NCBI RefSeq assembly: GCF_041080835.1
Contig: NZ_CP129683.1
Location: 682,001 to 746,000 of the forward strand
Direction of reading: 5' to 3'
Source of the DNA: Bifidobacterium sp. WK012_4_13
Lineage (GTDB): Bacteria > Actinomycetota > Actinomycetes > Actinomycetales > Bifidobacteriaceae
Length of the DNA stretch: 64,000 bases
The notes beneath the pieces were generated by a model that saw nothing but the letters and a program-made list of their open reading frames with translations, ran no database searches and was not told the origin of the DNA. The position numbers were made by a program, and so were the translations under genes. Shown piece by piece: positions 37,736 through 49,252 of this stretch (the first letter of the stretch is position 1; the number at the start of each line of letters is the position of its first letter).

Positions 37736-37770
37736 TGGCGCTGCGAAGAGCTTTCGCCTTCGCAGCGCCA
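37736..37770 (-). terminator. Terminator hairpin closing the ATP-grasp/SpoIIE operon and micro-ORF
   Basis: On the minus strand TGGCGCTGCGAA-GGCGAAAGCTC-TTCGCAGCGCCA, a perfect 12-bp stem, is followed by TTTTGATG. It lies 86 bases beyond the 24-codon ORF and 52 bases before the glycosyltransferase start. Confidence 0.8.
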
Positions 37771-37855: not shown

Positions 37856-37930
37856 TCACAGCGGCAACCTCGGAATCGGAGGAATGCCAGTGACTGCGTG
37901 AGAAGCATGGACGTCAATTCTCAGTGCCAT
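37856..37930 (-). CDS. 24-residue peptide ORF at the end of the ATP-grasp operon (candidate precursor or signal)
   Basis: ATG at 37930 preceded by AAAGGAG-ACATC, one of the best ribosome binding sites in this operon, opens a frame for MALRIDVHASHAVTGIPPI followed by PRLPL and a TGA stop. An in-frame ATG five codons earlier overlaps that site. The C-terminal third is Pro/Ile/Leu-rich (GIPPIPRLPL). A hairpin (CATCAAC-TTCCAT-GTTGATG, 37951-37970) and a TATAAT hexamer (37984-37989) lie upstream, and a terminator lies downstream, so it could form its own small transcript as well as the operon's end. No homolog comes to mind. Coding is supported only by the ribosome binding site and context. Confidence 0.45.
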   Translation of the reverse strand: MALRIDVHASHAVTGIPPIPRLPL

Positions 37931-37984
37931 GATGTCTCCTTTCATATTTTCATCAACATGGAAGTTGATGACACCACACAGACA

Positions 37985-38509
37985 TTATACACTATGTATG
38001 CATTGCAATCGCCTGCCGGAACTCTTTTCGACATAGACGACGTTGCCGCTCCCGACCCGCTCATAGATCATCACATCCATCATCCGCTGAATCAGGAATA
38101 TTCCCAGCCCTCCGACTGGGCGATCCTCCGGTTTGGCATTGATATCGACCGGTCTGCGCGACGTCGGGTCGAACGCTTTGCCATGGTCATGGAACCACAG
38201 TGCATAACGTAGCCCATGTTCAAGTTCCGCGCATTGTATCGTGACCGTGCAATCATGATCGCCACCCTCGTCGTTTGCACCCTGCGCATATGTGCAGTCA
38301 GGACGCCGCGAATCGGCACCACGATAGGCGTAGAGCGCAATGTTGACGAAGATCTCCTCGACGCAGAGCAGCAGCGATGCGGCGACTTCCTGCGGACAGC
38401 CGACATCGTCAAGAAACTCCCTCACGAACATCGTCGCGTCGGACAGTCGGGCATGGTCCGCAGGGAATATGCGCTCAGAACCCATGGGAAAGTCTTCGAA
38501 GACTGGCAT
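37985..38509 (-). CDS. RsbW/SpoIIAB-like anti-sigma regulatory kinase (HATPase)
   Basis: 174 residues of the GHKL ATPase fold used by anti-sigma serine kinases: N-box SLLLCVEEIFVNIALYAY, G1 WFHDHGKAFDP (DxGxxFDP form), and G2 RPVGGLGIFLIQRMMDVMIYER. By family it binds or phosphorylates the STAS protein encoded just upstream, and holds a sigma factor or other target when free. No sigma factor gene is present in the window, so the target is unknown. It starts eight bases after the STAS stop. An alternative ATG lies eight codons in. Confidence 0.88.
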   Translation of the reverse strand: MPVFEDFPMGSERIFPADHARLSDATMFVREFLDDVGCPQEVAASLLLCVEEIFVNIALYAYRGADSRRPDCTYAQGANDEGGDHDCTVTIQCAELEHGLRYALWFHDHGKAFDPTSRRPVDINAKPEDRPVGGLGIFLIQRMMDVMIYERVGSGNVVYVEKSSGRRLQCIHSV

Positions 38510-38516
38510 GTCCGTC

Positions 38517-38825
38517 TCATTCGATGCTGAGAAAATCAGAGAACCCGACCATCTCGATGATGTTGAGCACATCGGCGTTGAGATTGCGTAACGACAGGCT
38601 GGCATCCAGACCCTTCGTCTTCTTGTAGGCCAGCAGCAGGACTCGCAATCCTGCACTGCTGATGTATTCCAGATTCGTGCAGTCAAACACCATGTCCCTG
38701 CCCTCTTGGAATTCGGACTGCATGCTTTCCTCGAAGGCGGGGCTCGTATTGGTGTCCAATCTACCATTGAGGTTTACGACAAGCCTTCGCCCCTCGGCGA
38801 TATGGGTTGAGTTGAAGTCATTCAT
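38517..38825 (-). CDS. STAS-domain anti-anti-sigma factor (SpoIIAA/RsbV-like)
   Basis: 102 residues, one STAS domain. VVNLNGRLDTNTSPAFEESM and DCTNLEYISSAGLRVLLLAYK match the family, with the phosphorylatable serine in the ISSAGLR loop. The phosphorylated form is the expected substrate of the SpoIIE-type phosphatase whose gene overlaps its start by eight bases, and the unphosphorylated form would capture the downstream HATPase protein. AAGGAGAAATGC precedes the ATG. Confidence 0.92.
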   Translation of the reverse strand: MNDFNSTHIAEGRRLVVNLNGRLDTNTSPAFEESMQSEFQEGRDMVFDCTNLEYISSAGLRVLLLAYKKTKGLDASLSLRNLNADVLNIIEMVGFSDFLSIE

Positions 38826-41217
38826 GCATTTCTCCTTGGTTTGTGTGTGTACTGATTCGTCTTGCCTGTCTCATTGAGTTCAGATCGCCGTCGCTTTCCC
38901 CATGCACGGGCGGAGTCGTGCTGGAAGTCATGCTCGAAGTCATGACCGAAGGAATGACCGAAGTCATGTCGGTCTGCTTGCGTTCACCCAATCTGCGCGC
39001 GTCCTCCGCACAGGAGGCATCGCATGCCACGAACTGAAGTGCCAGGACTGTCAGGTCATCGGTCTGCTCTGCCGAACCGGCGAACGCAAAGACCTGGCTC
39101 TTCAACTCAGGCAGCAGCCTCTCGAACTGCGACTGGGGCACGTTTGAAACCGCGTGAATCAGCCGCTCCTCCCCGAACAGCTCATGCCTCTCATTGGCCA
39201 TCTCCGTCACGCCATCGGTATACAGCAAGATCTCATCGCCACGGCTGAGCGATGTCACCAGCTCCCTGTATCTGATTCCCTCCAATCCAGCCAGAACCAT
39301 GCCCGGAAGCATCGGAAGCAGTTCGAATCCTGCATCCGATCGGCGAATCAGAGGAGGGGTGTGTCCTGCGTTGGCGTATCGGAAGCGCCCAGTCGAGATG
39401 GTGAGATATCCGATGAAGACCGTGACGAACATTGAGGCGGAATTGCTTTCGCACAGCAGCTTATTCGCAGAGCTCAGCGCCTCCCCCGGACCCATGCCGC
39501 CCATGGCATTATGCTTGATCACCGTCTTCGATATGGCCATGAACAGGGCCGCAGGCACGCCTTTCCCAGAGACATCGGCCATGATCACCACAAGCGTGTC
39601 ATCATCGATCAGAAAGAAGTCATAGAAATCGCCGCCCACTTCCTTCGCAGCCTGCATTGACGCAACGAGTCGGAATTCGTGCCGCTCCGGGAACGGAGAC
39701 GACGCCTGAGGCAGCATGGCGTTCTGGATGCGCGTCGCAATCGAGAGCTCCGCACCTATCCGTTCACGCTCAGCCGTGACTTTGTTCAGATTCCGAATAT
39801 GCTCCTTCAGCTCACGTGACATGGAGCTGACCGAGGCGCCCAGATCCTCGATCTCGTCGCTGGTGTCGATCGCAATGACCGTATCGAGATTCCCAGATGC
39901 AATCTCACTGACTCTTTGCCGCAGGAGCGTGATCGGAGCGGTCAGTGCGTGTGCGAATCGTCTGGAGAGCAGAGCGACAAGAACGATGATCGTGAATGCG
40001 GCCACGACAAGGGCAGCCACCATGACACTGATGGCTTGGGTTATCGCATGGTGGGCCTGCGTCTGCATGGCCTCGATGGAGCGTTCACCCAAGCGAATGG
40101 GCTCCATGACTTTCTCGACAGATTGCACGACAGCCAAGTTCCAATCGAGGTTCTCGAGCGGAGCGAATGCGACGTATACGTCCTCCCCATCGAGCGCGAC
40201 CTGTCTGACTCCTTGCTTGTCATCCATCATGGCCTCTGCAAGCTCCCTCAGCTTCGAATCAGAGGATTCAGCCAGATTTCCAGGCTTCTCAGCATTCCCG
40301 GCTTCGCCGTCCAACGGCGTATCGGATGAGCCGACCTCGGAGTCCTCGTCGATCAGCGCGCCTTGGGAATTGAGCAGGAAGATAGACGTGTTCTCCGTCA
40401 ACTCGGCGATGCCTGAGATATCACTGAAACGGGAGAGCTTCAGATCAATGGCACCGACGCCATCCAGACTTCCATCCTTCGCATAGAAGGGAACCGAGCA
40501 TGTTATGACGAAGCCCCTGCCAGCCGTGTCCTCGTATATCTCGCTCCATGCCAAGTCTTCTGCCTCGACGGCGGCCCTGTACCATGGTCGCTGCTTCGCA
40601 TTCAGACTACCGCTGGCATGCAGGCCGGAATCCGAATCGGCAATGATCGTGGAACCTGACTCAAGGGAAACGTACGCAGACAGTACGTCCGGGCCGTTCT
40701 GTGCGATTGCGAGCATGATCGAGCCAAGGTTGCCGAAACGTGCCGAATCCCTCCGAGCTTCTTCGATGCTTGTTCGATCATCATGCAGCAGCTGCATCAC
40801 CAGTCTCCCATCATTGCTCGATTCGGGCGGCTCGACGGGAAACTGTGGATAGACTTCTGGATATCGCAGAATCCTTTCAGATTCGTCGACCAGCATGTAC
40901 GCGAAGTAATCGATGAGATAGATGTGCTCGTCGAGCAGCGATGCCTTTGCACGGGCTTCCTGGCTCAATTCGTCGAGCGCCTGTTTTTCAAGGGATTTCC
41001 TGCTTCCCTCGGACATCTGGCCTGTCAGATTGGTGCTGATCCTGGACATGGAGGCGCGCAGAAGAAACAGCCCCGAAACCGAGATGATCGCTGTGGCCAG
41101 AACCGCTATCAGCGTTATCCGTAGCGCAAGCCGAAACACCTTCGCTTCGATGCCACGCCGGAGTCGAACAGCGTAGGCAGCGAGGCTGAAGCGCTTCCTG
41201 ATGTCTCTCCCCGTCAT
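38818..41217 (-). CDS. Membrane-bound SpoIIE/RsbU-type PP2C phosphatase with sensor domain
   Basis: 799 residues. An N-terminal membrane helix (about 29-52), a large extracytoplasmic sensor region (about 53-385, Cache-like by size), a second helix (about 390-412), a HAMP linker (ITLLRQRVSEIASGNLDT), a coiled coil (about 450-490) and the SpoIIE domain with RIQNAMLP, VGGDFYDFF, MADVSGKGVPAALFM, LLYTDGVTEM and QTDDLTVLAL, which carry the metal-binding aspartates. By family it dephosphorylates the STAS protein in response to an outside cue. The extracytoplasmic sensor could read the compound exported by the operon, which is inference. A Ser/Thr/Met-rich tail of 60 residues follows the catalytic domain. 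Confidence 0.92.
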   Translation of the reverse strand: MTGRDIRKRFSLAAYAVRLRRGIEAKVFRLALRITLIAVLATAIISVSGLFLLRASMSRISTNLTGQMSEGSRKSLEKQALDELSQEARAKASLLDEHIYLIDYFAYMLVDESERILRYPEVYPQFPVEPPESSNDGRLVMQLLHDDRTSIEEARRDSARFGNLGSIMLAIAQNGPDVLSAYVSLESGSTIIADSDSGLHASGSLNAKQRPWYRAAVEAEDLAWSEIYEDTAGRGFVITCSVPFYAKDGSLDGVGAIDLKLSRFSDISGIAELTENTSIFLLNSQGALIDEDSEVGSSDTPLDGEAGNAEKPGNLAESSDSKLRELAEAMMDDKQGVRQVALDGEDVYVAFAPLENLDWNLAVVQSVEKVMEPIRLGERSIEAMQTQAHHAITQAISVMVAALVVAAFTIIVLVALLSRRFAHALTAPITLLRQRVSEIASGNLDTVIAIDTSDEIEDLGASVSSMSRELKEHIRNLNKVTAERERIGAELSIATRIQNAMLPQASSPFPERHEFRLVASMQAAKEVGGDFYDFFLIDDDTLVVIMADVSGKGVPAALFMAISKTVIKHNAMGGMGPGEALSSANKLLCESNSASMFVTVFIGYLTISTGRFRYANAGHTPPLIRRSDAGFELLPMLPGMVLAGLEGIRYRELVTSLSRGDEILLYTDGVTEMANERHELFGEERLIHAVSNVPQSQFERLLPELKSQVFAFAGSAEQTDDLTVLALQFVACDASCAEDARRLGERKQTDMTSVIPSVMTSSMTSSTTPPVHGESDGDLNSMRQARRISTHTNQGEMHE

Positions 41218-41270
41218 GTTTCACGTCACCTCGGCAATCGTCGTCGCGCGAGCAATCATTTCGAAGATGG

Positions 41271-42965
41271 TCATTCAGCATCGACAAGAGCGAAGAAGAA
41301 TCGCTCCTTGCCCGGAGTGTCAATGACCCGAACAGGCTTGAGCTGGTTCTCCGATGTGCCACGCAGCACCATCAGATCGCGATACAGATAGTAGGTCTCC
41401 TGCTGCACGAAGCGTATGTCCATCGCACCGAGCACGCCATCCCTGACCTTGCTGCCGAAGGATGGGTTCGCCACCGACAGCTTGCCTTCGATCAGACTGC
41501 GATACTCTGCGTGCCTTTCAATATCCACATGCCTGTCGGCTTCCATGAACAGCACGTACCGCCCAGGCGTCGCATCGATGTCGGCGTAGATGCTGTAGTC
41601 GGCGATGGCATGCCCGCTCGCCTTCTCGAACTCGCCCACCGTCCATGCGATGCTTGCCTCATTGGTCTTCTCTCCCGCGATGCTCACCATCTGCTTCTTC
41701 CTATAGACGAAGCAGACCTTGGGCGTCTGACCGGCATATCCCGTCACCCGCAGCACGTCACCGATTCGATAGCGATAGAAACCGGATAGGTTGGTAAGAA
41801 CGATCTCATAGTCCCTGCCCACCTCCAGCTCGTCCAGATTCAACGTTTCCGTAGGACTGTCTTCGTCGGCAGGAATGAATTCATAGAATCCGCTCTCGGG
41901 CAGCAGCATATATTCCGCACGCTCCATCTCAGTGGCGACGGCCATCAACGATTCCGAAGCGGCATAGGTGCCAAGGTAGAAGGGAATTGAGCCCGTGTAC
42001 CTTCGCATCTTCTCGGTGTAGGCCTGGAATCCGCCACCCCCGATTGCGCCCACATATTCGAGATGTGGCCATATGCGAGGAACGATCGCTTCGTCAAAGC
42101 CACGCTCGAATTCACGCCGCAGCGATTCCGCCCTCGCCGGATCGGGTTCCAGACTTGTCTGCAATTCCTTGCGCAATGCATCAGGCATGCTTATCGAAGG
42201 ATTGACCACGCCAGCCGCAATGTCTCTGACCAGCATCTCCCAGTTGACTTCGAGATAGTGCATCAGATCGACCAACGCGGTCATGAAGGGCGCGTTCATG
42301 GCGGCAAGCCCCTCCTCCTTGAGACCGAAGAACAGCCGCAGGTATTTCATGTTGATGTTGCCCGGAGGCGGGAAGAACACCGAGGAAGGGACCACACTTA
42401 TGTAGTCGAGCAGCGGCTTGAGCTTGCCATAGACTGCGGACGACACCGCACCGCGGCTTGTGCCGTCTTCGACCGTGTCATCATGCGCCACCGCTGCGAT
42501 CAGTATTCTGCCGCCATGAACAGGCCGTTGCTGGGTCTGCGTCACATGGTTGAAGGGGACGGTCGAGGACACATGACCTGCAAAGCGTTCATATATTCCC
42601 ATCGTCTCCTCTGACACGGGTATGTTCTTGGGATTGTCGACGCTTCCGGAAGTCACGGCATAGCGAACGATCGGATAGCTGGTTATCAGGTTCCTTTCAC
42701 CCTTGACCATCCGTTCGATATAGGGCGCATAATCGTCATATGTGGACAGCGGAACCTTCGATTTGAACTCCTCGACCGAATGAATGTCGCCGAAGCCAAG
42801 GCTCTTGCCATATTCCGTGTCTGCATTGTCGCGGATCACGCGCATCAGCAACGCTTCGCTCACCGACTTGGCCTGTTCTGAGCGTTCGGAGAGCTCCTTC
42901 AATGCGGCGTTGCCGCTGCTGAGAATGTTCTGGTTCACTTCCTGCAGGATTTGTGCGATGTCCAT
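41271..42965 (-). CDS. GH3 family acyl-adenylating amide synthetase-like protein
   Basis: 564 residues matching the GH3 auxin-responsive family over its length: DNADTEYGKSLGFGDIHSVEEFKSKVPLSTYDDYAPYIERM, the ATP motif region RYAVTSGSVDNPKNIPVS, an SSVFFPPPGNI loop, the YAASES motif, LPESGFYEFIP, YRYRIGDVLRVTGY and KTNEA near the second ATP contact. Plant GH3 enzymes adenylate a carboxylic acid and join it to an amino acid; bacterial members are uncharacterised for the most part. Here it follows two ATP-grasp ligases and two exporter genes in one operon, so it may supply the acyl or amide step of a small molecule. AAAGGGAACTCAT precedes the ATG. Confidence 0.85.
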   Translation of the reverse strand: MDIAQILQEVNQNILSSGNAALKELSERSEQAKSVSEALLMRVIRDNADTEYGKSLGFGDIHSVEEFKSKVPLSTYDDYAPYIERMVKGERNLITSYPIVRYAVTSGSVDNPKNIPVSEETMGIYERFAGHVSSTVPFNHVTQTQQRPVHGGRILIAAVAHDDTVEDGTSRGAVSSAVYGKLKPLLDYISVVPSSVFFPPPGNINMKYLRLFFGLKEEGLAAMNAPFMTALVDLMHYLEVNWEMLVRDIAAGVVNPSISMPDALRKELQTSLEPDPARAESLRREFERGFDEAIVPRIWPHLEYVGAIGGGGFQAYTEKMRRYTGSIPFYLGTYAASESLMAVATEMERAEYMLLPESGFYEFIPADEDSPTETLNLDELEVGRDYEIVLTNLSGFYRYRIGDVLRVTGYAGQTPKVCFVYRKKQMVSIAGEKTNEASIAWTVGEFEKASGHAIADYSIYADIDATPGRYVLFMEADRHVDIERHAEYRSLIEGKLSVANPSFGSKVRDGVLGAMDIRFVQQETYYLYRDLMVLRGTSENQLKPVRVIDTPGKERFFFALVDAE

Positions 42966-43009
42966 ATGAGTTCCCTTTCCTTGAGGCCGTCTTGCGGGCC
43001 GGACCTGTT

Positions 43010-44770
43010 TCATTGGTCTGCGTGATCGAATTGCGAGGCATACAGGGCTGCATAGGTGCCATTCCTGGCAAGAAGTTCTTCATGGCTGCCCTGCTCGACA
43101 ATGTGCCCACGCTCCATGACCAGGATGATGTCAGCTCCCCGGATGGTGGAGAGCCTGTGTGCGATGACGAAGCTGGTTCTGCCTTCTCTCAGGGAATCGA
43201 TGGCACTCTGTATGAGCGCCTCCGTGCGAGTGTCGACGGAACTTGTGGCCTCGTCCAGAATCAGGATGTTCGATTGAGGCAGGAAGGCCCTGGCAATGGT
43301 CAGCAGCTGCTTCTCCCCTGCCGAGACCACGGTGCCTTCGTTGGTTATCTCCGTGCCGAAGCCCAGGGGAAGCGTGTCCACAAAGTCATCGACGAATGCC
43401 GCCTTGCAGGCTCTCACGAAGCGCACATGCGAGACATCGGCGATCTGCGGCGCCCCATAGCTGATGTTGTCTCGAATCGTCCCCTGACGCAGCCAAGTGT
43501 CTTGCAGCACCATCGAGATGTTGCGACGCAGCGCGTGCCTGGTCAGATCGTGAATCTCGATTGCATCGTCGAACACGATCTCCCCTGAATTCACCTCATA
43601 GAACCGTTCGATAAGGTTCACCAGCGTCGTTTTTCCGGCGCCCGTGCTCCCAACGATCGCAACTGTCTGGCCCGCCTCGACCTTGAGATTGAGATGTTCT
43701 ATCAACGGCTTGTCAGGCACGTAGCTGAAGGAGACGTCCCTGAATTCGACGCTGCCGGAAAGACTGCGCTCACGCATGGCATGGGTCGAGTCCGGATGTT
43801 CCTCCTCGGCATCGAGCAGTTCGAACACACGCCTGAGCGATGCGTTCCCCGATTGGATGGCGCTCGTCATCTGGGCGAGCGAGGTGAAGGGCTGACTGAA
43901 CTGCCGCGCATACTGGATAAAGGCCTGGACATCGCCGATGCTCATGGTTCCGCTGACGACGCGCATGGCTCCTACCAGCGCGACGATAACATAGTTCAGG
44001 TTCGTCAGGAATCTCGAGCAAGGCTGAATCAGATTGGAAAAGCCCAGCGCCTTGAACGATGCCCTGTAGAGATCGGCATTGTGTTCCTCGAAACGCTCCT
44101 CGAAACGAGATTCCAGGCCAAAGCTCTTGATGACCGTCTGCCCGTTGAAGCTCTCTTCGACAAGTGAGTTCACGATTCCTGTCACGTCCCACTGCCGGCG
44201 GAACTGAGGAGCGGAAATCGAGGTGATGCAGTGAACCAGGAATGCGGACAGAGGGATCAGCACCACAGTGACCAGGGCGAGATGCCACGAAAGGGTGACC
44301 ATCATCGCCAGTATGCCGACCAGCATCAGAAGATAGTAGAGAAGGTCCCCACCTGTCTGGTTCAGCATCAGCACGACGTTGTTGATGTCATTCGTCGTGC
44401 GGCTCAAGATGTCGCCCAGACTCTTCGAATCGTAGTAGTTCAATGGCAGTTTCCAGATCTTGGTTTCGATCCTGTTGCGAAGCTCATAGGCGATGTCGCT
44501 CACCATCCTTGTCGAAAGCCATCCCGCGATCCATTTCGAAAGGAACTGAACGCCATAGATGCCAAGGGCGAAGACAAGCCACAGCATGAACGGGGACCAT
44601 TGGATGCCATCGCGGCGCAGACCGTCGACCAGAACATCCGTGGCCCGGCTCAGCACGATCGGGCCGAACGCGACTCCAAGTCCCGATACGATCAGGCAGA
44701 CCACCATAAGCATGCTTCGCGTTCTGTCGGCAAAGAACATGCGAATCAGACGAGACATCGATGCTGGCAA
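43010..44770 (-). CDS. ABC exporter half-transporter B (TMD-NBD)
   Basis: 586 residues: a six-helix exporter domain (about 15-310) and an ATPase domain (about 335-580). Walker A VGSTGAGKTT, Q-loop MVLQDTWLRQGT, Walker B NILILDEATSSVD, switch His IAHRLSTI. The signature is VSAGEKQLLTIAR in place of LSGGQ. Paired with the gene immediately upstream (one base between stop and start region), it should form a heterodimeric exporter of the lipid/drug/peptide type. A TTG start at 44770 fits AAGGAG six bases ahead; the ATG four codons later is too far from that site. Confidence 0.92.
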   Translation of the reverse strand: MPASMSRLIRMFFADRTRSMLMVVCLIVSGLGVAFGPIVLSRATDVLVDGLRRDGIQWSPFMLWLVFALGIYGVQFLSKWIAGWLSTRMVSDIAYELRNRIETKIWKLPLNYYDSKSLGDILSRTTNDINNVVLMLNQTGGDLLYYLLMLVGILAMMVTLSWHLALVTVVLIPLSAFLVHCITSISAPQFRRQWDVTGIVNSLVEESFNGQTVIKSFGLESRFEERFEEHNADLYRASFKALGFSNLIQPCSRFLTNLNYVIVALVGAMRVVSGTMSIGDVQAFIQYARQFSQPFTSLAQMTSAIQSGNASLRRVFELLDAEEEHPDSTHAMRERSLSGSVEFRDVSFSYVPDKPLIEHLNLKVEAGQTVAIVGSTGAGKTTLVNLIERFYEVNSGEIVFDDAIEIHDLTRHALRRNISMVLQDTWLRQGTIRDNISYGAPQIADVSHVRFVRACKAAFVDDFVDTLPLGFGTEITNEGTVVSAGEKQLLTIARAFLPQSNILILDEATSSVDTRTEALIQSAIDSLREGRTSFVIAHRLSTIRGADIILVMERGHIVEQGSHEELLARNGTYAALYASQFDHADQ

Positions 44771-44771
44771 T

Positions 44772-46565
44772 CTAGGCTCCTTGCTTCGCTAAGGGAATGG
44801 ACGAAGACGATGGAGACGCACGATGCCGAAACTCTTCTCGGGGCTGCGACGCGACGATCTGCTGATAGACGTCGCAGTGCTTCAGCAGTTGCTCGTGAGT
44901 TCCCATATCCGCGACTTCACCGTTGTCCATGACGATGATCTGGTCGGCATGCATGATGGAGGCGACCCGCTGGGCGACGATGATCACTGCGGCCTCGTCG
45001 GCGACCTCGCTCAGACCTTCACGAACCCTCCGGTCGGTCGCATAGTCCAAGGCTGAAAACGAATCGTCAAAGACATATATCGCTGGGTCATGGACGATGG
45101 CTCGCGCTATCGCCAGCCGCTGTCTCTGGCCGCCAGAGAAGTTCGACCCACCCTGGGCGACCCTGATGTCCAATCCCGCCTTGTCCTCGGCGATGAAGCG
45201 TTCGGCATCCGCAATCCTCAATGCCTTCCACATGTCTTGCTCGCTTGCCATGGGATTGGCATAGAGAAGATTGCTCCTCAGGGATCCAGAGAACAGGAAC
45301 GCCTTCTGAGGGACGAAACCGCATGCCCGGTGAATGTCAGCGGCATCGAGTTCCTTGATGTCGTGCCCACCCAGCCGTATGGTTCCGGTGGTGGGATCGG
45401 TCAGCCTTGGAATGAGGCTGACCAAGGTGCTCTTGCCACATCCGGTCGAACCAATGATGGCGGTCGTGCTTCCTGGCCGCACGGTGAAGCTTATGTCCTT
45501 CAGCACCGGTGCGACGGAAGGGTCATCAGGCGCATATGAGAAGGAGACATGGTCAAACTCGACCATCCCCATCCCTTGTCCCGATGCCAGATGCACGGGC
45601 TTTCGGGGCTGCCTGACGTGGCTTTCTACCCGCATCACCTCGGCGAATCGTTCGGCCGACACATCTGCCTGAGGAAGCATGATGAAGACCAGGGACGCGA
45701 GCAGCACAGCGGTCAGAATGAATGACATATAGGTGATGAAGGCGATGATTTTGCCGATCGGAAGTCCGTGGGTCTCGGCCAGGAAGCCACCGAACCATAG
45801 AATCGCAACGGTCGTCGCATTGACGATGAACATGAACAATGGAGCCAGCAACGTGGTCAGTCTGCCGATGTGGACGCTCAGATCCAACAGTCTTTGGTTG
45901 ATTCCCGAGAATTGCCGCTGCTCATGGCCTTCCTTGACGAAAGCCTTCACGACGCGGACGCCGCTGATCTGATCGCGCAACGCACCGTTGACGTCGTCGG
46001 CGCCCTTCTGCTGCTCGCGGTAGAGGGGAACGAGCCTTGCGATGAAGATGACGGAGATGCCGATGAGCATCGGCAGCACGGCGAGGATGACGAAGGAGAG
46101 CCGAATATCCTGCAGGCAGGCCATCAGCACGCCGCCGACGAACATGATCGGAGCGTTGATGATGACGGTAAAGAGGAAGGTGAGGAATTCCACAATCTGC
46201 TGAACGTCACCTGTTGATCTGGAAATCAGTGTAGGAGCACCGAAGACAGTCATCTCTCGGTGGGAGAAGCTCATGATGTGCGCAAAGACGCGGCCGCGCA
46301 GCTCTCTCCCCACTGACAGCGCCACCTTCGTGCCAAGTATGCTTGCTGCGACCAAGCTTACGAACTGCAGGACGCTCAGCACGATCATGATTTCGAATCG
46401 CTGATAGATGTAGCCTGTGTCCGCATTCAAGACCCCGACATCGATGATCGAGGCATTGATCGTCGGCAGATAGAGGGAGAGCAATGCCTGGGCTATCTGA
46501 AGAGCAAGAATGCAGACCGTCTCCTTCGCATGGGAGCGAAGGAGAGATTTGAGCAGAACGAGCAT
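44772..46565 (-). CDS. ABC exporter half-transporter A (TMD-NBD)
   Basis: 597 residues with six membrane helices (about 15-300) and an ATPase domain (about 335-575): Walker A IGSTGCGKST, signature FSGGQRQRLAIAR, Walker B IYVFDDSFSALDYATD, in which the catalytic Glu is replaced by Asp or Ser (DDS), and a Gln in the switch position (VAQRVASI). So this half carries a degenerate catalytic site, as in heterodimeric exporters with one active site. Ten bases after the upstream ATP-grasp stop, with AAGG ahead. The pair most likely exports the product of the operon; resistance function is possible. Confidence 0.92.
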   Translation of the reverse strand: MLVLLKSLLRSHAKETVCILALQIAQALLSLYLPTINASIIDVGVLNADTGYIYQRFEIMIVLSVLQFVSLVAASILGTKVALSVGRELRGRVFAHIMSFSHREMTVFGAPTLISRSTGDVQQIVEFLTFLFTVIINAPIMFVGGVLMACLQDIRLSFVILAVLPMLIGISVIFIARLVPLYREQQKGADDVNGALRDQISGVRVVKAFVKEGHEQRQFSGINQRLLDLSVHIGRLTTLLAPLFMFIVNATTVAILWFGGFLAETHGLPIGKIIAFITYMSFILTAVLLASLVFIMLPQADVSAERFAEVMRVESHVRQPRKPVHLASGQGMGMVEFDHVSFSYAPDDPSVAPVLKDISFTVRPGSTTAIIGSTGCGKSTLVSLIPRLTDPTTGTIRLGGHDIKELDAADIHRACGFVPQKAFLFSGSLRSNLLYANPMASEQDMWKALRIADAERFIAEDKAGLDIRVAQGGSNFSGGQRQRLAIARAIVHDPAIYVFDDSFSALDYATDRRVREGLSEVADEAAVIIVAQRVASIMHADQIIVMDNGEVADMGTHEQLLKHCDVYQQIVASQPREEFRHRASPSSSSIPLAKQGA

Positions 46566-46575
46566 GGGCGCCTTG

Positions 46576-47535
46576 TCAGTCAAGTTGATGGCTGTCATTC
46601 TCGAAGAAATCAGAATCAAGTGCAGACATGTCTGTCAAGGAGCTCTGCAGATCATCGTAAATGCCAGGCGATCGTGATGCCTCGAAACCTTCGATGGCTG
46701 CATTCAGCGCCTGAAGCATGTATGCAGGATACATGCCCGGGAATGCGTTGACCTCCGCAAGAACGAACCCTTCGGTCCCGAACATCAGGTCCAGCCCTAT
46801 AAGAGGAAGGTCAAAGAGTGAGGCGACCCGTGCACACAGCGCCTGCGTCTCCTGATCGATCGGATATTTCAGCAATTCGCCTCCGACGTGCACATTGGAG
46901 CGGAACTCCTGTGGGTCACTCGCCTTTCTCATCGTCGAATAGAGGTATTCGCCATTGAGCAGCACGACCCGCACATCCCTACCGCGCGACGTCGCGATGT
47001 ATTCCTGCGCGATGTAGGTCTGGCCATATGCAGCCTGAGCGATGAAGGCATCGAATTCTTCCTCCGACTTGATGAGGGTCACGCCCTCTCCTCCGAAGCC
47101 ATAGTTGGGCTTCACGACGAAGGGATATCCGAAATGCTGTTCAATCGCGGACTTATCGGGTTTGTCAAAGAACACGAATGAGTCCGGCACGGGTATTCCA
47201 TTCGCCTTCAGCAGCTGATAGGTGTCGACCTTGCTTCTCGCGACCTCGACCTCACGCATGTTCACGATGCTCGGAATTCCAGCGCGAACGAGCAGCTTCT
47301 CAAGGGAGGCTGTCTCCGTGTTGCTGATCATCGGCCAGAAGACATCGGGACGTTCGATGGGCTTGCCCTGATAGAACAATTGAATGTTCTTTCCGTCACC
47401 GATGCCGACCGTAACCTGCTCTGGATAGATAGTCGTCGCCTTGTCGCGCAACTCCTGAGGAAACATATCCTGATATGTCGTGAACACGTCGTCGAATCCA
47501 GAAATCAGGGCCCAGACCTTCAAGTTCTCGGACAT
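46576..47535 (-). CDS. ATP-grasp ligase (RimK/LysX-like)
   Basis: 319 residues. N-terminal pre-ATP-grasp domain, then FPFVVKPN-type YPFVVKPNYGFGGEGVTLI (ATP lysine and Gly-rich loop), YIAQEYI, the RimK-type GRDVRVVLLNGEYLYSTMRKA, and the metal site LIGLDLMFG..LAEVNAFPG. Such enzymes activate a carboxylate as acyl-phosphate and form an amide or peptide bond. RimK/LysX relatives add amino acids to a protein or carrier side chain or terminus. Neighbours suggest a biosynthetic role. Three bases separate it from the upstream ATP-grasp gene. Confidence 0.9.
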   Translation of the reverse strand: MSENLKVWALISGFDDVFTTYQDMFPQELRDKATTIYPEQVTVGIGDGKNIQLFYQGKPIERPDVFWPMISNTETASLEKLLVRAGIPSIVNMREVEVARSKVDTYQLLKANGIPVPDSFVFFDKPDKSAIEQHFGYPFVVKPNYGFGGEGVTLIKSEEEFDAFIAQAAYGQTYIAQEYIATSRGRDVRVVLLNGEYLYSTMRKASDPQEFRSNVHVGGELLKYPIDQETQALCARVASLFDLPLIGLDLMFGTEGFVLAEVNAFPGMYPAYMLQALNAAIEGFEASRSPGIYDDLQSSLTDMSALDSDFFENDSHQLD

Positions 47536-47538
47536 GGC

Positions 47539-48876
47539 TCAGCCCTCGGCAAGGATTCGGGCGTCATGGACGATTTTTTCAGTGAAGACCTCTGGATATC
47601 GCTCGCGAAGCCCAGTCAACTCCTTGAGAAGCTCCGCGGTCGACGCGAATCCTCCCAGAACGAATCCACTGTTCTCGAATACGATATTTGCCACTGTGGA
47701 TTTGACATTCGATATCTCGATGACATGGTCGAGGTCATTGAGTTCACGCAACACGTCGTCGCTTGGTGTGGGAACTCTGAAGGTCAGCGTATAGCGAAGA
47801 TTCTCAGGCTCCGAATAGTCGACGGGGCTGCCCAGAGCGGATTCCATGTAGACATCAAGCGGGGTTCGTTCCTCTGCTGCGGCGGCAGTGCTCGTAAGTC
47901 CGGACATCCTCGGATTGATCTCGATGACATACCACTTGCCGTCCCTGAATGCCAGGTCAATTTCTGCAGATCCTCCGAATTCCAAGGTTTCAGCCAATCT
48001 GCGCAACGATTCCTGAAGCTGCCTGACATTATATTGCTCCGCGAGAACCGGACCGAACTTCATGCCGACCACCGGATCCACGATGCCTTCGTCATTCAGA
48101 GCCAGCCTGAATGGTGGCAGCACATGGTAGCTTCCCTTCACCCCATGAATCTCGGTTCCAAACTGCTCGCCTTTGATGAGTTCCTCGACAAGGACATCAC
48201 TGCCTCGATTGCTTGCGCTGAGCAGATCCCATGCTTCCTCCGGCGTTTCCACAATCTGGATGCCTATCGAAGCCACTCCCACAGTGTCCTTGACGATGAC
48301 TGGATAGTGCAGATTCTCAACACGATATTGGATATAGTGCTTGTACACGTTGCTTTCTATCCCCGGCACCCTGGTCTCGGCCCAGAACAGATCGTTGTGG
48401 ATGTACACAGCCTTGGCAACGCCGAATCCCAATTCCCTAAGCACGAGATGTGTACGCCACTTGTCAAACGTCGCGATGGAAGTGAAGATGTTATGCGCAA
48501 CGGTCTTGATTCCATGCTCCTGCAATATCTCCGCAATGATCGCATCCTCGAGCGAATTCCAATCAAGAGGTATCTCCGGGCTGGAAACCGCAACGGCTAC
48601 GGCGGGTGCCAGATCGACTATGACCTGCGCGAAATCGGCGGGAACGAGCGCCTCATCAATGAGCACACATTGGATTCCTGACGGTTCGATGACTGTGCCA
48701 TCCGTGTCCTTTTCAAGGAGCATGTATCCAGACGACCTCGTCACGAAGACAATCTCATGCTGAGGATATTGCTCAGCCAGTGCCTTCCACATGTCACTCT
48801 TGGACGGATAGTAGGTCTGCACTATCTCCCTGTCATCGTAGATGCCCGAATACGTCTGATACATAACTATTCTCAT
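47539..48876 (-). CDS. ATP-grasp ligase (carbamoyl-phosphate-synthase/D-Ala ligase-like fold)
   Basis: 445 residues. First gene of the operon. Residues 1-150 form a Rossmann-like domain (MRIVMYQTYSGIYDDRE, FVTRSSGYMLLE, SPEIPLDWNSLEDAIIAEIL). The ATP-grasp core has TFDKWRTHLVLRELGF, YPVIVKDTVGVASIGI, VLVEELIKGEQFGTEI, and metal-binding EIDLAF..YVIEINPRMSG. The INPRMSG form is common in amino-acid ligases of the L-amino-acid ligase/DUF1297-like groups that make dipeptides. A 90-residue C-terminal domain with FENSGFVLGGFASTAELL resembles the lid of those ligases. The product is unknown. Confidence 0.9.
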   Translation of the reverse strand: MRIVMYQTYSGIYDDREIVQTYYPSKSDMWKALAEQYPQHEIVFVTRSSGYMLLEKDTDGTVIEPSGIQCVLIDEALVPADFAQVIVDLAPAVAVAVSSPEIPLDWNSLEDAIIAEILQEHGIKTVAHNIFTSIATFDKWRTHLVLRELGFGVAKAVYIHNDLFWAETRVPGIESNVYKHYIQYRVENLHYPVIVKDTVGVASIGIQIVETPEEAWDLLSASNRGSDVLVEELIKGEQFGTEIHGVKGSYHVLPPFRLALNDEGIVDPVVGMKFGPVLAEQYNVRQLQESLRRLAETLEFGGSAEIDLAFRDGKWYVIEINPRMSGLTSTAAAAEERTPLDVYMESALGSPVDYSEPENLRYTLTFRVPTPSDDVLRELNDLDHVIEISNVKSTVANIVFENSGFVLGGFASTAELLKELTGLRERYPEVFTEKIVHDARILAEG

Positions 48877-48964: not shown

Positions 48965-49095
48965 CCTTTCAAAGCATGCCTTCCTATCGCTCACGTTGAA
49001 ATAAGACCTTAGCATATCATTTACGACAATGCGTATGCATTTCATTCTCAGTTAACCTCGCTTTGTACTCACTGAGAATGACTGTGGTACATTAG

Positions 49096-49252
49096 GTCTC
49101 GTCAGTTTCAGGGTTTGGTGAAATTCCTTACTGGCGGTAACGACAGCGTCGATGTCATAACGACGTGCATGCGAAGCCCGCGACCCGCGCAAGCGGCTGA
49201 TTCGGTGAGAATCCGAGGCCAACGGTTACAGTCCGGATGGAAGAAACGAGGC
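49096..49252 (+). promoter_or_regulatory. FMN riboswitch (RFN element)
   Basis: Conserved blocks in order: CAGGGTTTGGTGAAATTCC, TTACTGGCGGTAA, GCCCGCGACCCGC, GCGGCTGATTCGGTGAGAATCCGAGGCC, AACGGTTACAGTCCGGATGGAAGAA. The closing stem P1 pairs GTCTCGT (49096-49102) with ACGAGGC (49246-49252), and that 3' strand contains the ribosome binding site GAGG of the next gene, six bases before its ATG. FMN binding would close P1 and hide the site, so control is probably at translation with no separate expression platform. Confidence 0.95.

What the first reader, a model, noticed from the sequence alone, without database searches (positions are those of the whole stretch)
37856..48876. Uncharacterised operon: two ATP-grasp ligases, heterodimeric ABC exporter, GH3 acyl-adenylating enzyme, SpoIIE/STAS/RsbW partner switch and a micro-ORF
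Eight genes on one strand with gaps of 53 bases or less (several overlap or are 1-13 bases apart) combine two amide-forming ATP-grasp enzymes, a second carboxylate-activating family (GH3), and an exporter pair in which one half has a degenerate ATPase site. That set is the minimum for making and exporting a small peptide- or amide-type compound. The same run carries a membrane-anchored SpoIIE phosphatase with a large outside sensor domain and its STAS and HATPase partners, which suggests sensing of the product or its target. I know of no described pathway with this combination; no NRPS, PKS or known RiPP enzyme is present.
Basis: partly seen in the sequence, partly recalled or inferred. Interest (0 to 1): 0.86.

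Follow-up and report, generated by a model that had tools for sequence, protein, structure and literature searches.

The report
Mobile amide-making operon with built-in sensor
A bifidobacterium carries an operon, apparently shared by transfer with Clostridia, that looks built to join small acids and amino acids into an exported compound without the usual large enzymes, together with its own amino-acid-like sensor; the product is unknown.

Summary
In detail: one strand carries two ATP-grasp ligases, a heterodimeric ABC exporter, a GH3 acyl-acid amido synthetase, a dCache-HAMP-SpoIIE phosphatase, a STAS protein and an RsbW-like ATPase, tightly packed and closed by a terminator. The unit exists beyond this genome. 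ABC1-ABC2-graspA-graspB-GH3 are neighbours, in another order, in four near-identical clostridial genomes. Two further clostridial contigs appear, by matching contig length, to hold graspA, GH3 and SpoIIE together. In its own family only this genome of 189 has the graspA orthologue, so horizontal transfer is likely. Clostridial SpoIIE orthologues carry the complete published amino-acid-binding dCache motif; the window has 6 of 7 residues. Best reading: an NRPS-independent amide-ligase pathway, working like those for dapdiamide or E-64 but with GH3 as adenylating ligase, whose small acyl-peptide product is exported by the ABC pair and tuned by an extracytoplasmic amino-acid-like signal. Chemistry, export and signalling are inferred. 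The 24-codon micro-ORF shows no conservation and is not supported as a precursor. Ten literature searches listed no paper on this combination. Verdict: new variant of a known kind.

The parts
47539..48876 (-). graspA, 445-aa ATP-grasp ligase (superfamily of D-Ala-D-Ala ligase, L-amino acid ligase, PurK)
   Evidence: Pfam Dala_Dala_lig_C 44 bits; 38-row alignment with invariant K196, E231, E232, E319, N321; AF2 model mean pLDDT 92.8
46576..47535 (-). graspB, 319-aa RimK/LysX-like ATP-grasp ligase
   Evidence: Pfam RimK 96.1 bits; TIGR00768 129.4 bits against cut-off 143.4; nearest solved chains are called probable alpha-L-glutamate ligases
44772..46619 (-). ABC1, exporter half with degenerate Walker B (FDD) and H-loop (Q); TTG start, inner ATG possible
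   Evidence: Pfam ABC_membrane and ABC_tran; 53.5-54.8% identity to clostridial cluster ABC1
43010..44770 (-). ABC2, partner exporter half with degenerate signature (SAGEK) and canonical Walker B
   Evidence: 59.2-60.9% to clostridial cluster ABC2 against at most 54% among the matches listed for other genomes of its family
41271..43013 (-). GH3 acyl-acid amido synthetase, 580 aa; inner ATG at 42965 gives a 564-aa form
   Evidence: GH3, GH3_M and GH3_C over cut-off; plant GH3 structures matched at 168.5-214.4 bits; conserved motif residues in 21 rows
41221..41274 (-). 17-codon ORF overlapping the GH3 stop by 4 nt and ending 3 nt before SpoIIE; possible translational coupling
   Evidence: not tested further
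38818..41217 (-). dCache-HAMP-SpoIIE membrane phosphatase, 799 aa
   Evidence: Pfam SpoIIE 151.9, dCache_1 56.4, HAMP 41.5 bits; phosphatase Asp residues kept
38517..38825 (-). STAS anti-anti-sigma-type protein, 102 aa
   Evidence: Pfam STAS 62.8 bits; TIGR00377 69 bits, over its cut-off
37985..38509 (-). RsbW-like HATPase_c_2 protein, 174 aa
   Evidence: Pfam HATPase_c_2 73.6 bits; RsbW models only weakly, 23.3 bits against 145
37856..37930 (-). 24-codon micro-ORF with strong Shine-Dalgarno; role unsupported
37736..37770 (-). terminator-like hairpin closing the operon

Best explanation
A horizontally transferred, clostridial-type, NRPS-independent biosynthetic operon. GH3 adenylates a carboxylic acid and joins it to an amino acid. 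The two ATP-grasp ligases, which by family activate carboxylates as acyl phosphates, add further amino-acid or amine units, giving a small acyl-peptide or pseudopeptide. The heterodimeric ABC1/ABC2 exporter moves it out. The dCache-HAMP-SpoIIE phosphatase reads an amino acid or amino-acid-like compound outside the cell and dephosphorylates the STAS protein, which captures or releases the RsbW-like ATPase; the end target is unknown, since no sigma factor is encoded in the operon. Shown here: gene content, conserved ligase and phosphatase residues, recurrence of the unit in Clostridia, near-complete sensor motif. Inferred: substrates, order of steps, export, direction of signalling and of gene transfer.
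For: Domains. Core ABC1-ABC2-graspA-graspB-GH3 as neighbours in L079-L082, in another order. Arrangements in L002, L070, L071 with L007, and L083 that mix graspA with the exporter pair, GH3, STAS or SpoIIE. graspA, GH3 and SpoIIE homologues share contig lengths 17,835 and 11,465; a third pair, graspA and GH3 only, shares 97,738. Window GH3 falls in a supported 24-row clade (99/96) with the first two of these and with the L080 GH3s. SpoIIE in 1 of 27 genus genomes, the own one. dCache motif 6 of 7 in the window, 7 of 7 in P0163-P0168. Model of graspA resembles PurK, L-amino acid ligase BL00235 and PylC. The ATP-grasp plus adenylating-ligase logic is established in E-64 and dapdiamide (PMC12568646, abstract and section 'Main' read).
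Against: No product, transcript or enzyme assay. graspA structure matches are near-tied among carboxylating and ligating enzymes, so amide ligation by graspA is not shown. 5 of 14 genomes with a graspA-family gene show none of the partners nearby, two of them with partial genes. The core cluster in L079-L082 lacks the partner switch, and those four genomes are 95-97.5% identical in graspA, so they count as one observation. Other cluster-linked GH3s (L070, L071, P0097) and L063 fall outside the window's clade. The window's sensor lacks the first aromatic of the amino-acid motif; single mismatches in the related amine motif weakened or abolished binding (PMC10104139, passages). Five SpoIIE proteins of more distant loci (two in L065, one each in L063, L070, L083) lack the R-x-W-aromatic string altogether.
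Confidence: 0.58

Rival explanations
1. Aminolipid pathway: GH3 makes an N-acyl amino acid lipid, as OlsH makes lyso-ornithine lipid, the ATP-grasps add head-group residues, and ABC1/ABC2 flip the lipid. The operon remodels the membrane rather than secreting a free compound.
For: The only NCBIfam match of the GH3 at E 0.001 is OlsH (106.8 bits); ABC2 scores best against the MsbA lipid flippase model (429.9 bits, below cut-off 602); OlsH makes lyso-ornithine lipid from ornithine and fatty acid, and its authors suggest homologues use other amino acids (PMC12493201, passages).
Against: The OlsH cut-off of 620 bits is not met. No alpha/beta-hydrolase (OlsI-like) domain in the eight genes. 188 models match ABC2, so exporter family scores do not tell lipid from drug or peptide substrates.
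Confidence: 0.22
2. Envelope tailoring: the ligases modify a cell-wall or teichoic-acid precursor and the exporter moves it.
For: graspA's best Pfam match is Dala_Dala_lig_C. A GT2 gene lies just downstream; PGA_cap genes occur in L063 and L071 and a GT2 gene in L071.
Against: D-Ala-D-Ala ligase models are far below cut-off. A terminator-like hairpin separates the GT2 gene from the operon. The core clostridial cluster L079-L082 shows no recognised envelope gene inside it (by homology to the window's genes and reading of ORFs only).
Confidence: 0.1
3. RiPP pathway: the 24-codon micro-ORF is a precursor modified by the RimK-like graspB.
For: Strong Shine-Dalgarno before the micro-ORF; 6 such small ATG ORFs on both strands of the 64-kb window.
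Against: No relative in 15 loci (score 37 against 37-45 for 15 shuffles) and none in 26 other genus genomes at DNA level, though none of those genomes holds the operon. The core ligases occur without it in the loci read.
Confidence: 0.03

Closest known systems
Dapdiamide (DdaF/DdaG), E-64 (Cp1B/Cp1D) and cystargolide (CysC/CysD) pathways
   Same: Stand-alone amide-forming enzymes, in the first two an ATP-grasp ligase plus an adenylating amide synthetase, no NRPS (PMC12568646, section 'Main')
   Different: Here the adenylating enzyme is GH3, there are two ATP-grasps, no precursor-making enzyme was recognised, and a sensor-phosphatase partner switch sits in the operon; homology of graspA or graspB to those enzymes was not tested
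OlsH lyso-ornithine lipid synthetase (bacterial GH3)
   Same: GH3 family; amide synthesis from acid, amino acid and ATP (PMC12493201, passages)
   Different: 106.8 bits against a cut-off of 620; different genomic setting
Plant GH3 acyl-acid amido synthetases (JAR1, GH3.12, GH3.8)
   Same: Match over nearly the full length
   Different: Distant sequence; acyl substrate of the window's enzyme unknown
RsbU/RsbV/RsbW and SpoIIE-type partner switches
   Same: Phosphatase, STAS and HATPase in a row
   Different: No sigma factor in the operon; the own genome has 2 Sigma70_r2 matches, both elsewhere. Clostridial relatives L002, L070, L071, L083 fuse STAS to an APH-type kinase domain
Heterodimeric ABC exporters (TM287/288 3qf4, and 9iqe/8wcw)
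   Same: Paired halves, one degenerate ATPase site
   Different: ABC2 is closer to clostridial cluster transporters (59.2-60.9%) than to the listed matches in other genomes of its family (at most 54%)

Membership tests
NRPS-independent ATP-grasp / amide-synthetase pathways | Stand-alone ATP-grasp ligase with conserved catalytic-type residues | tested here: met
   graspA alignment (which residues are catalytic is recalled); graspB family match
NRPS-independent ATP-grasp / amide-synthetase pathways | Adenylating amide bond synthetase of the DdaG type | tested here: inconclusive
   The adenylating enzyme has GH3 domains and no AMP-binding (PF00501) match; DdaG itself was not compared. It may work alike but looks like another family
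NRPS-independent ATP-grasp / amide-synthetase pathways | Amide product formed by the enzymes | not testable with these tools
   needs enzyme assays
GH3 acyl-acid amido synthetases | GH3 N, middle and C domains over cut-off, motif residues kept | tested here: met
OlsH lyso-ornithine lipid synthetase | NF052613 curated cut-off of 620 bits | tested here: not met
   106.8 bits
D-alanine-D-alanine ligases | NCBIfam Ddl cut-offs | tested here: not met
   PRK01372.1 51.7 of 243, TIGR01205 49.9 of 245.65, archaeal Ddl-like NF053643 66.1 of 500 bits
RimK-family alpha-L-glutamate ligases | TIGR00768 cut-off of 143.4 bits | tested here: not met
   129.4 bits, just below
dCache_1AA amino-acid sensors | Residues of the published motif (PctA Y121, R126, W128, Y129, Y144, D173 from the passages seen; D146 recalled) | tested here: not met
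   window has L at the Y121 position, the other six kept; P0163-P0168 have all seven
Partner-switching regulators | Phosphatase, STAS and HATPase encoded together | tested here: met
Partner-switching regulators | Cognate sigma factor in the operon | tested here: not met
   2 Sigma70_r2 matches in the genome, both elsewhere
RiPP clusters | Precursor peptide conserved with the modifying enzymes | tested here: not met

The most novel reading that the evidence does not exclude
An undescribed family of GH3 plus double ATP-grasp pathways, spread between Clostridia and Bifidobacterium, makes and exports small acyl-peptide signals or effectors in animal guts, and each full operon reads amino acids (or its own amino-acid-like product) outside the cell through a dCache phosphatase that gates output by a sigma-free partner switch.
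Probability: 0.3. Interest if true: 0.82.

Novelty: new variant of a known kind. Interest (0 to 1): 0.62.

Why it matters
Bifidobacteria are generally thought poor in specialised metabolism (recalled). A compact, modular and apparently mobile operon for making an exported amide would give them a route to a new small molecule, and GH3 enzymes would gain a role in peptide-like natural products. The sensor motif gives a direct test: titrate the dCache domain with amino acids. Related gene sets in Lachnospiraceae sit beside NRPS genes, so they may point to several unseen compounds.

Tried and rejected
Micro-ORF as precursor: no support. D-Ala-D-Ala ligase and OlsH identity: below curated cut-offs. 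Wide presence in the own family: not found in the held genomes, though a 92%-identical graspA cluster named Bifidobacterium sp. exists in the protein collection. The 88 other family genomes that ring match at 29.4 bits or less and were taken as other ATP-grasp enzymes. A divergent GH3 in L083 (497-aa neighbour of graspA): no similarity to the GH3 profile. Species naming through the second contig against plasmids: only a 1% match (first 20,000 of 42,795 bases were given). GH3 on plasmids: only distant hits, 10 records of 72,556. The graspA model was compared only with the 1000 chains that Foldseek ranked; 50 rows were shown and BL00235 was the only dipeptide-type ligase I recognised there, which excludes nothing. 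Foreign base composition: GC and third-position GC of the operon genes are near those of the neighbours, graspA and STAS a little lower in GC, so composition gives no clear transfer signal. Locus L012 (25% identity over 135 residues) was dropped from the neighbourhood count. Of 41 graspA hits 37 went into the alignment (P0011, P0036, P0040, P0041 left out); of 32 SpoIIE hits 13 plus the window; of 120 listed GH3 hits 16 into and 39 into the tree.

Literature: ten full-text searches. I saw listings, some capped (20 of 90 papers, 10 of 20), and no listed title pointed to this combination. Most subscription papers are not held. Opened: PMC12493201 (passages), PMC10104139 and PMC11245519 (passages), PMC12568646 (abstract, outline and section 'Main').
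Full report
Observation. They are packed with gaps from -44 to +44 bases; a 24-codon ORF follows 54 bases after the last gene, and a 14-pair terminator-like hairpin at 37770-37736 closes the run before a glycosyltransferase gene. A 17-codon ORF bridges GH3 and SpoIIE, overlapping the GH3 stop by 4 bases. A consensus scan found no promoter upstream of the first gene. On the other side an FMN riboswitch (49100-49252, + strand) precedes divergent ORFs that look like an ECF-type transporter by eye.

Exporter. ABC1 and ABC2 look like the usual heterodimer with one degenerate ATPase site, read directly from the sequence; a solved relative of ABC1 shares its features. The pair therefore probably travelled with the cluster.

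Distribution. In 189 genomes of its family only the own genome holds a graspA orthologue; 88 others ring only weakly, at 29.4 bits or less. In 296 class-level genomes, drawn from a larger group, only the own one holds a close GH3; two others match at 26-28% identity. SpoIIE occurs in 1 of 27 genus genomes, the own one. The protein collection holds 41 graspA homologues: P0001 (92%, Bifidobacterium sp.) and 40 at 35-52% identity, of which the four with an organism name come from Clostridiales, Firmicutes, Eubacterium and Treponema records.

How rare the family is. With the graspA profile, 5 of 391 genomes of the class of G484 and 2 of 299 of its family match at E 1e-50, G484 itself counted in both. 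With the window GH3, 6 of 299 of that family match at E 1e-130; none of the 7 stretches read around those GH3 genes shows graspA.

Neighbourhoods. I read the surroundings of graspA-family genes in 14 other genomes. An ABC1/ABC2-like pair lies on the same stretch or contig in 8 of 14, GH3 (alone or fused to a GT2 domain) in 7 of 14, graspB in 5 of 14, STAS in 4 of 14, and SpoIIE in 2 of 14 plus one partial match in G488. None of these partners was seen in 5 of 14 (G485, G489, G490, G491, G492); in G491 and G492 the gene is partial. The four core-cluster genomes are 95-97.5% identical in graspA and count as one event; in one of them (L079) the GH3 is cut by the contig end. The core order there is ABC1-ABC2-graspA-graspB-GH3, different from the window, so conservation of content has outlived order. 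L002 keeps graspA-graspB-ABC1-ABC2 in the window's order, with its GH3 elsewhere in the genome.

Full operon in Clostridia. Homologues of graspA (P0009, P0003), GH3 (P0045, P0044) and SpoIIE (P0165, P0166) have the same longest-contig lengths, 17,835 and 11,465 bases. P0007 and P0097 likewise share 97,738. I infer that they share contigs; I could not fetch them. In a 48-row tree the window GH3 sits inside a supported clade of 24 rows (99/96) with P0044, P0045 and the L080 GH3s; P0097, L063, L065, L070 and L071 fall outside it. Together with the absence from relatives this points to transfer between Clostridia and this lineage; the direction is inferred. Base composition gives no clear extra signal.

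Wider family. In Blautia (L070, L006), Pseudobutyrivibrio (L071, L007) and other genomes (L002, L063, L083) related parts occur with NRPS modules, glycosyltransferase and PGA_cap proteins, a GT2-GH3 fusion, a phosphopantetheinyl transferase and a STAS-APH kinase fusion, not all in each. The window's operon is a version without carrier proteins.

Sensor. Alignment to PctA and to 13 SpoIIE homologues places the residues of the published amino-acid motif (PMC10104139 and PMC11245519, passages; D146 recalled). The window has L, R, W, Y, Y, D, D; P0163-P0168, 6 of 13 homologues and including the two that seem cluster-linked, have all seven. So the ancestral sensor of this close group was probably an amino-acid receptor, and the window's copy may bind a changed ligand or bind less well. 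Against a general rule, five SpoIIE proteins in more distant loci lack the R-x-W-aromatic string, and those of L070 and L083 show no dCache domain. The five phosphatase aspartates are kept in 14 of 14 rows. The genome has two Sigma70_r2 matches, neither in the operon, and clostridial relatives link STAS to a kinase domain, so the switch may act on something other than a sigma factor. This last step is inference.

Micro-ORF. It has a strong Shine-Dalgarno, one of 6 such small ORFs on both strands of the window. No DNA relative was found in 26 other genus genomes, and its best match in 15 clostridial loci (37) is no better than 15 shuffles (37-45). I do not count it as part of the pathway.

Known systems. 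The chemical logic matches NRPS-independent pathways with an ATP-grasp ligase and an adenylating amide synthetase, such as E-64 and dapdiamide (PMC12568646: abstract and section 'Main' read). GH3 in that role, two ATP-grasps, and a sensor-phosphatase partner switch in one operon did not appear in the listings of ten full-text searches. OlsH shows that a bacterial GH3 makes an amide of ornithine with fatty acids (PMC12493201, passages), which keeps the aminolipid rival alive.

Verdict. The operon is real, its core recurs as a unit in Clostridia, it was probably transferred across phyla, and it is undescribed as far as I could search. Its function as a maker and exporter of a small amide is the most likely reading (0.58), with an aminolipid pathway as the main rival (0.22).

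Noticed in passing
window 41221-41274 (-): 17-codon ORF that overlaps the GH3 stop by 4 nt and ends 3 nt before SpoIIE; looks like a translational relay.
   Followed up: no
window 49042-49081: 11-bp perfect inverted repeat TCATTCTCAGT / ACTGAGAATGA with an 18-nt spacer between the operon start and the divergent FMN riboswitch; possible operator.
   Followed up: no
L070 5693-19615, L071 7319-19901, L007 1-14165, L083 4408-17906: Clostridial gene clusters with graspA, paired ABC exporters, SpoIIE and STAS-APH kinase fusions, in L070, L071 and L007 also NRPS modules and nearby a GT2-GH3 fusion; seemingly an uncharacterised cluster family.
   Followed up: partly
L065 3098-10180: Two SpoIIE proteins (one fused to HATPase_c_2), STAS and GH3 in a row without the ligases or exporter.
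   Followed up: partly
L063 9058-19001: SpoIIE-like gene, a second GH3, PGA_cap, ABC1, ABC2 and GH3 on one strand with no graspA in the stretch.
   Followed up: partly
L081 2-4597: NRPS ending in a reductase-type domain (C-A-T-NAD_binding_4) a few kilobases from the core cluster, on the other strand.
   Followed up: no
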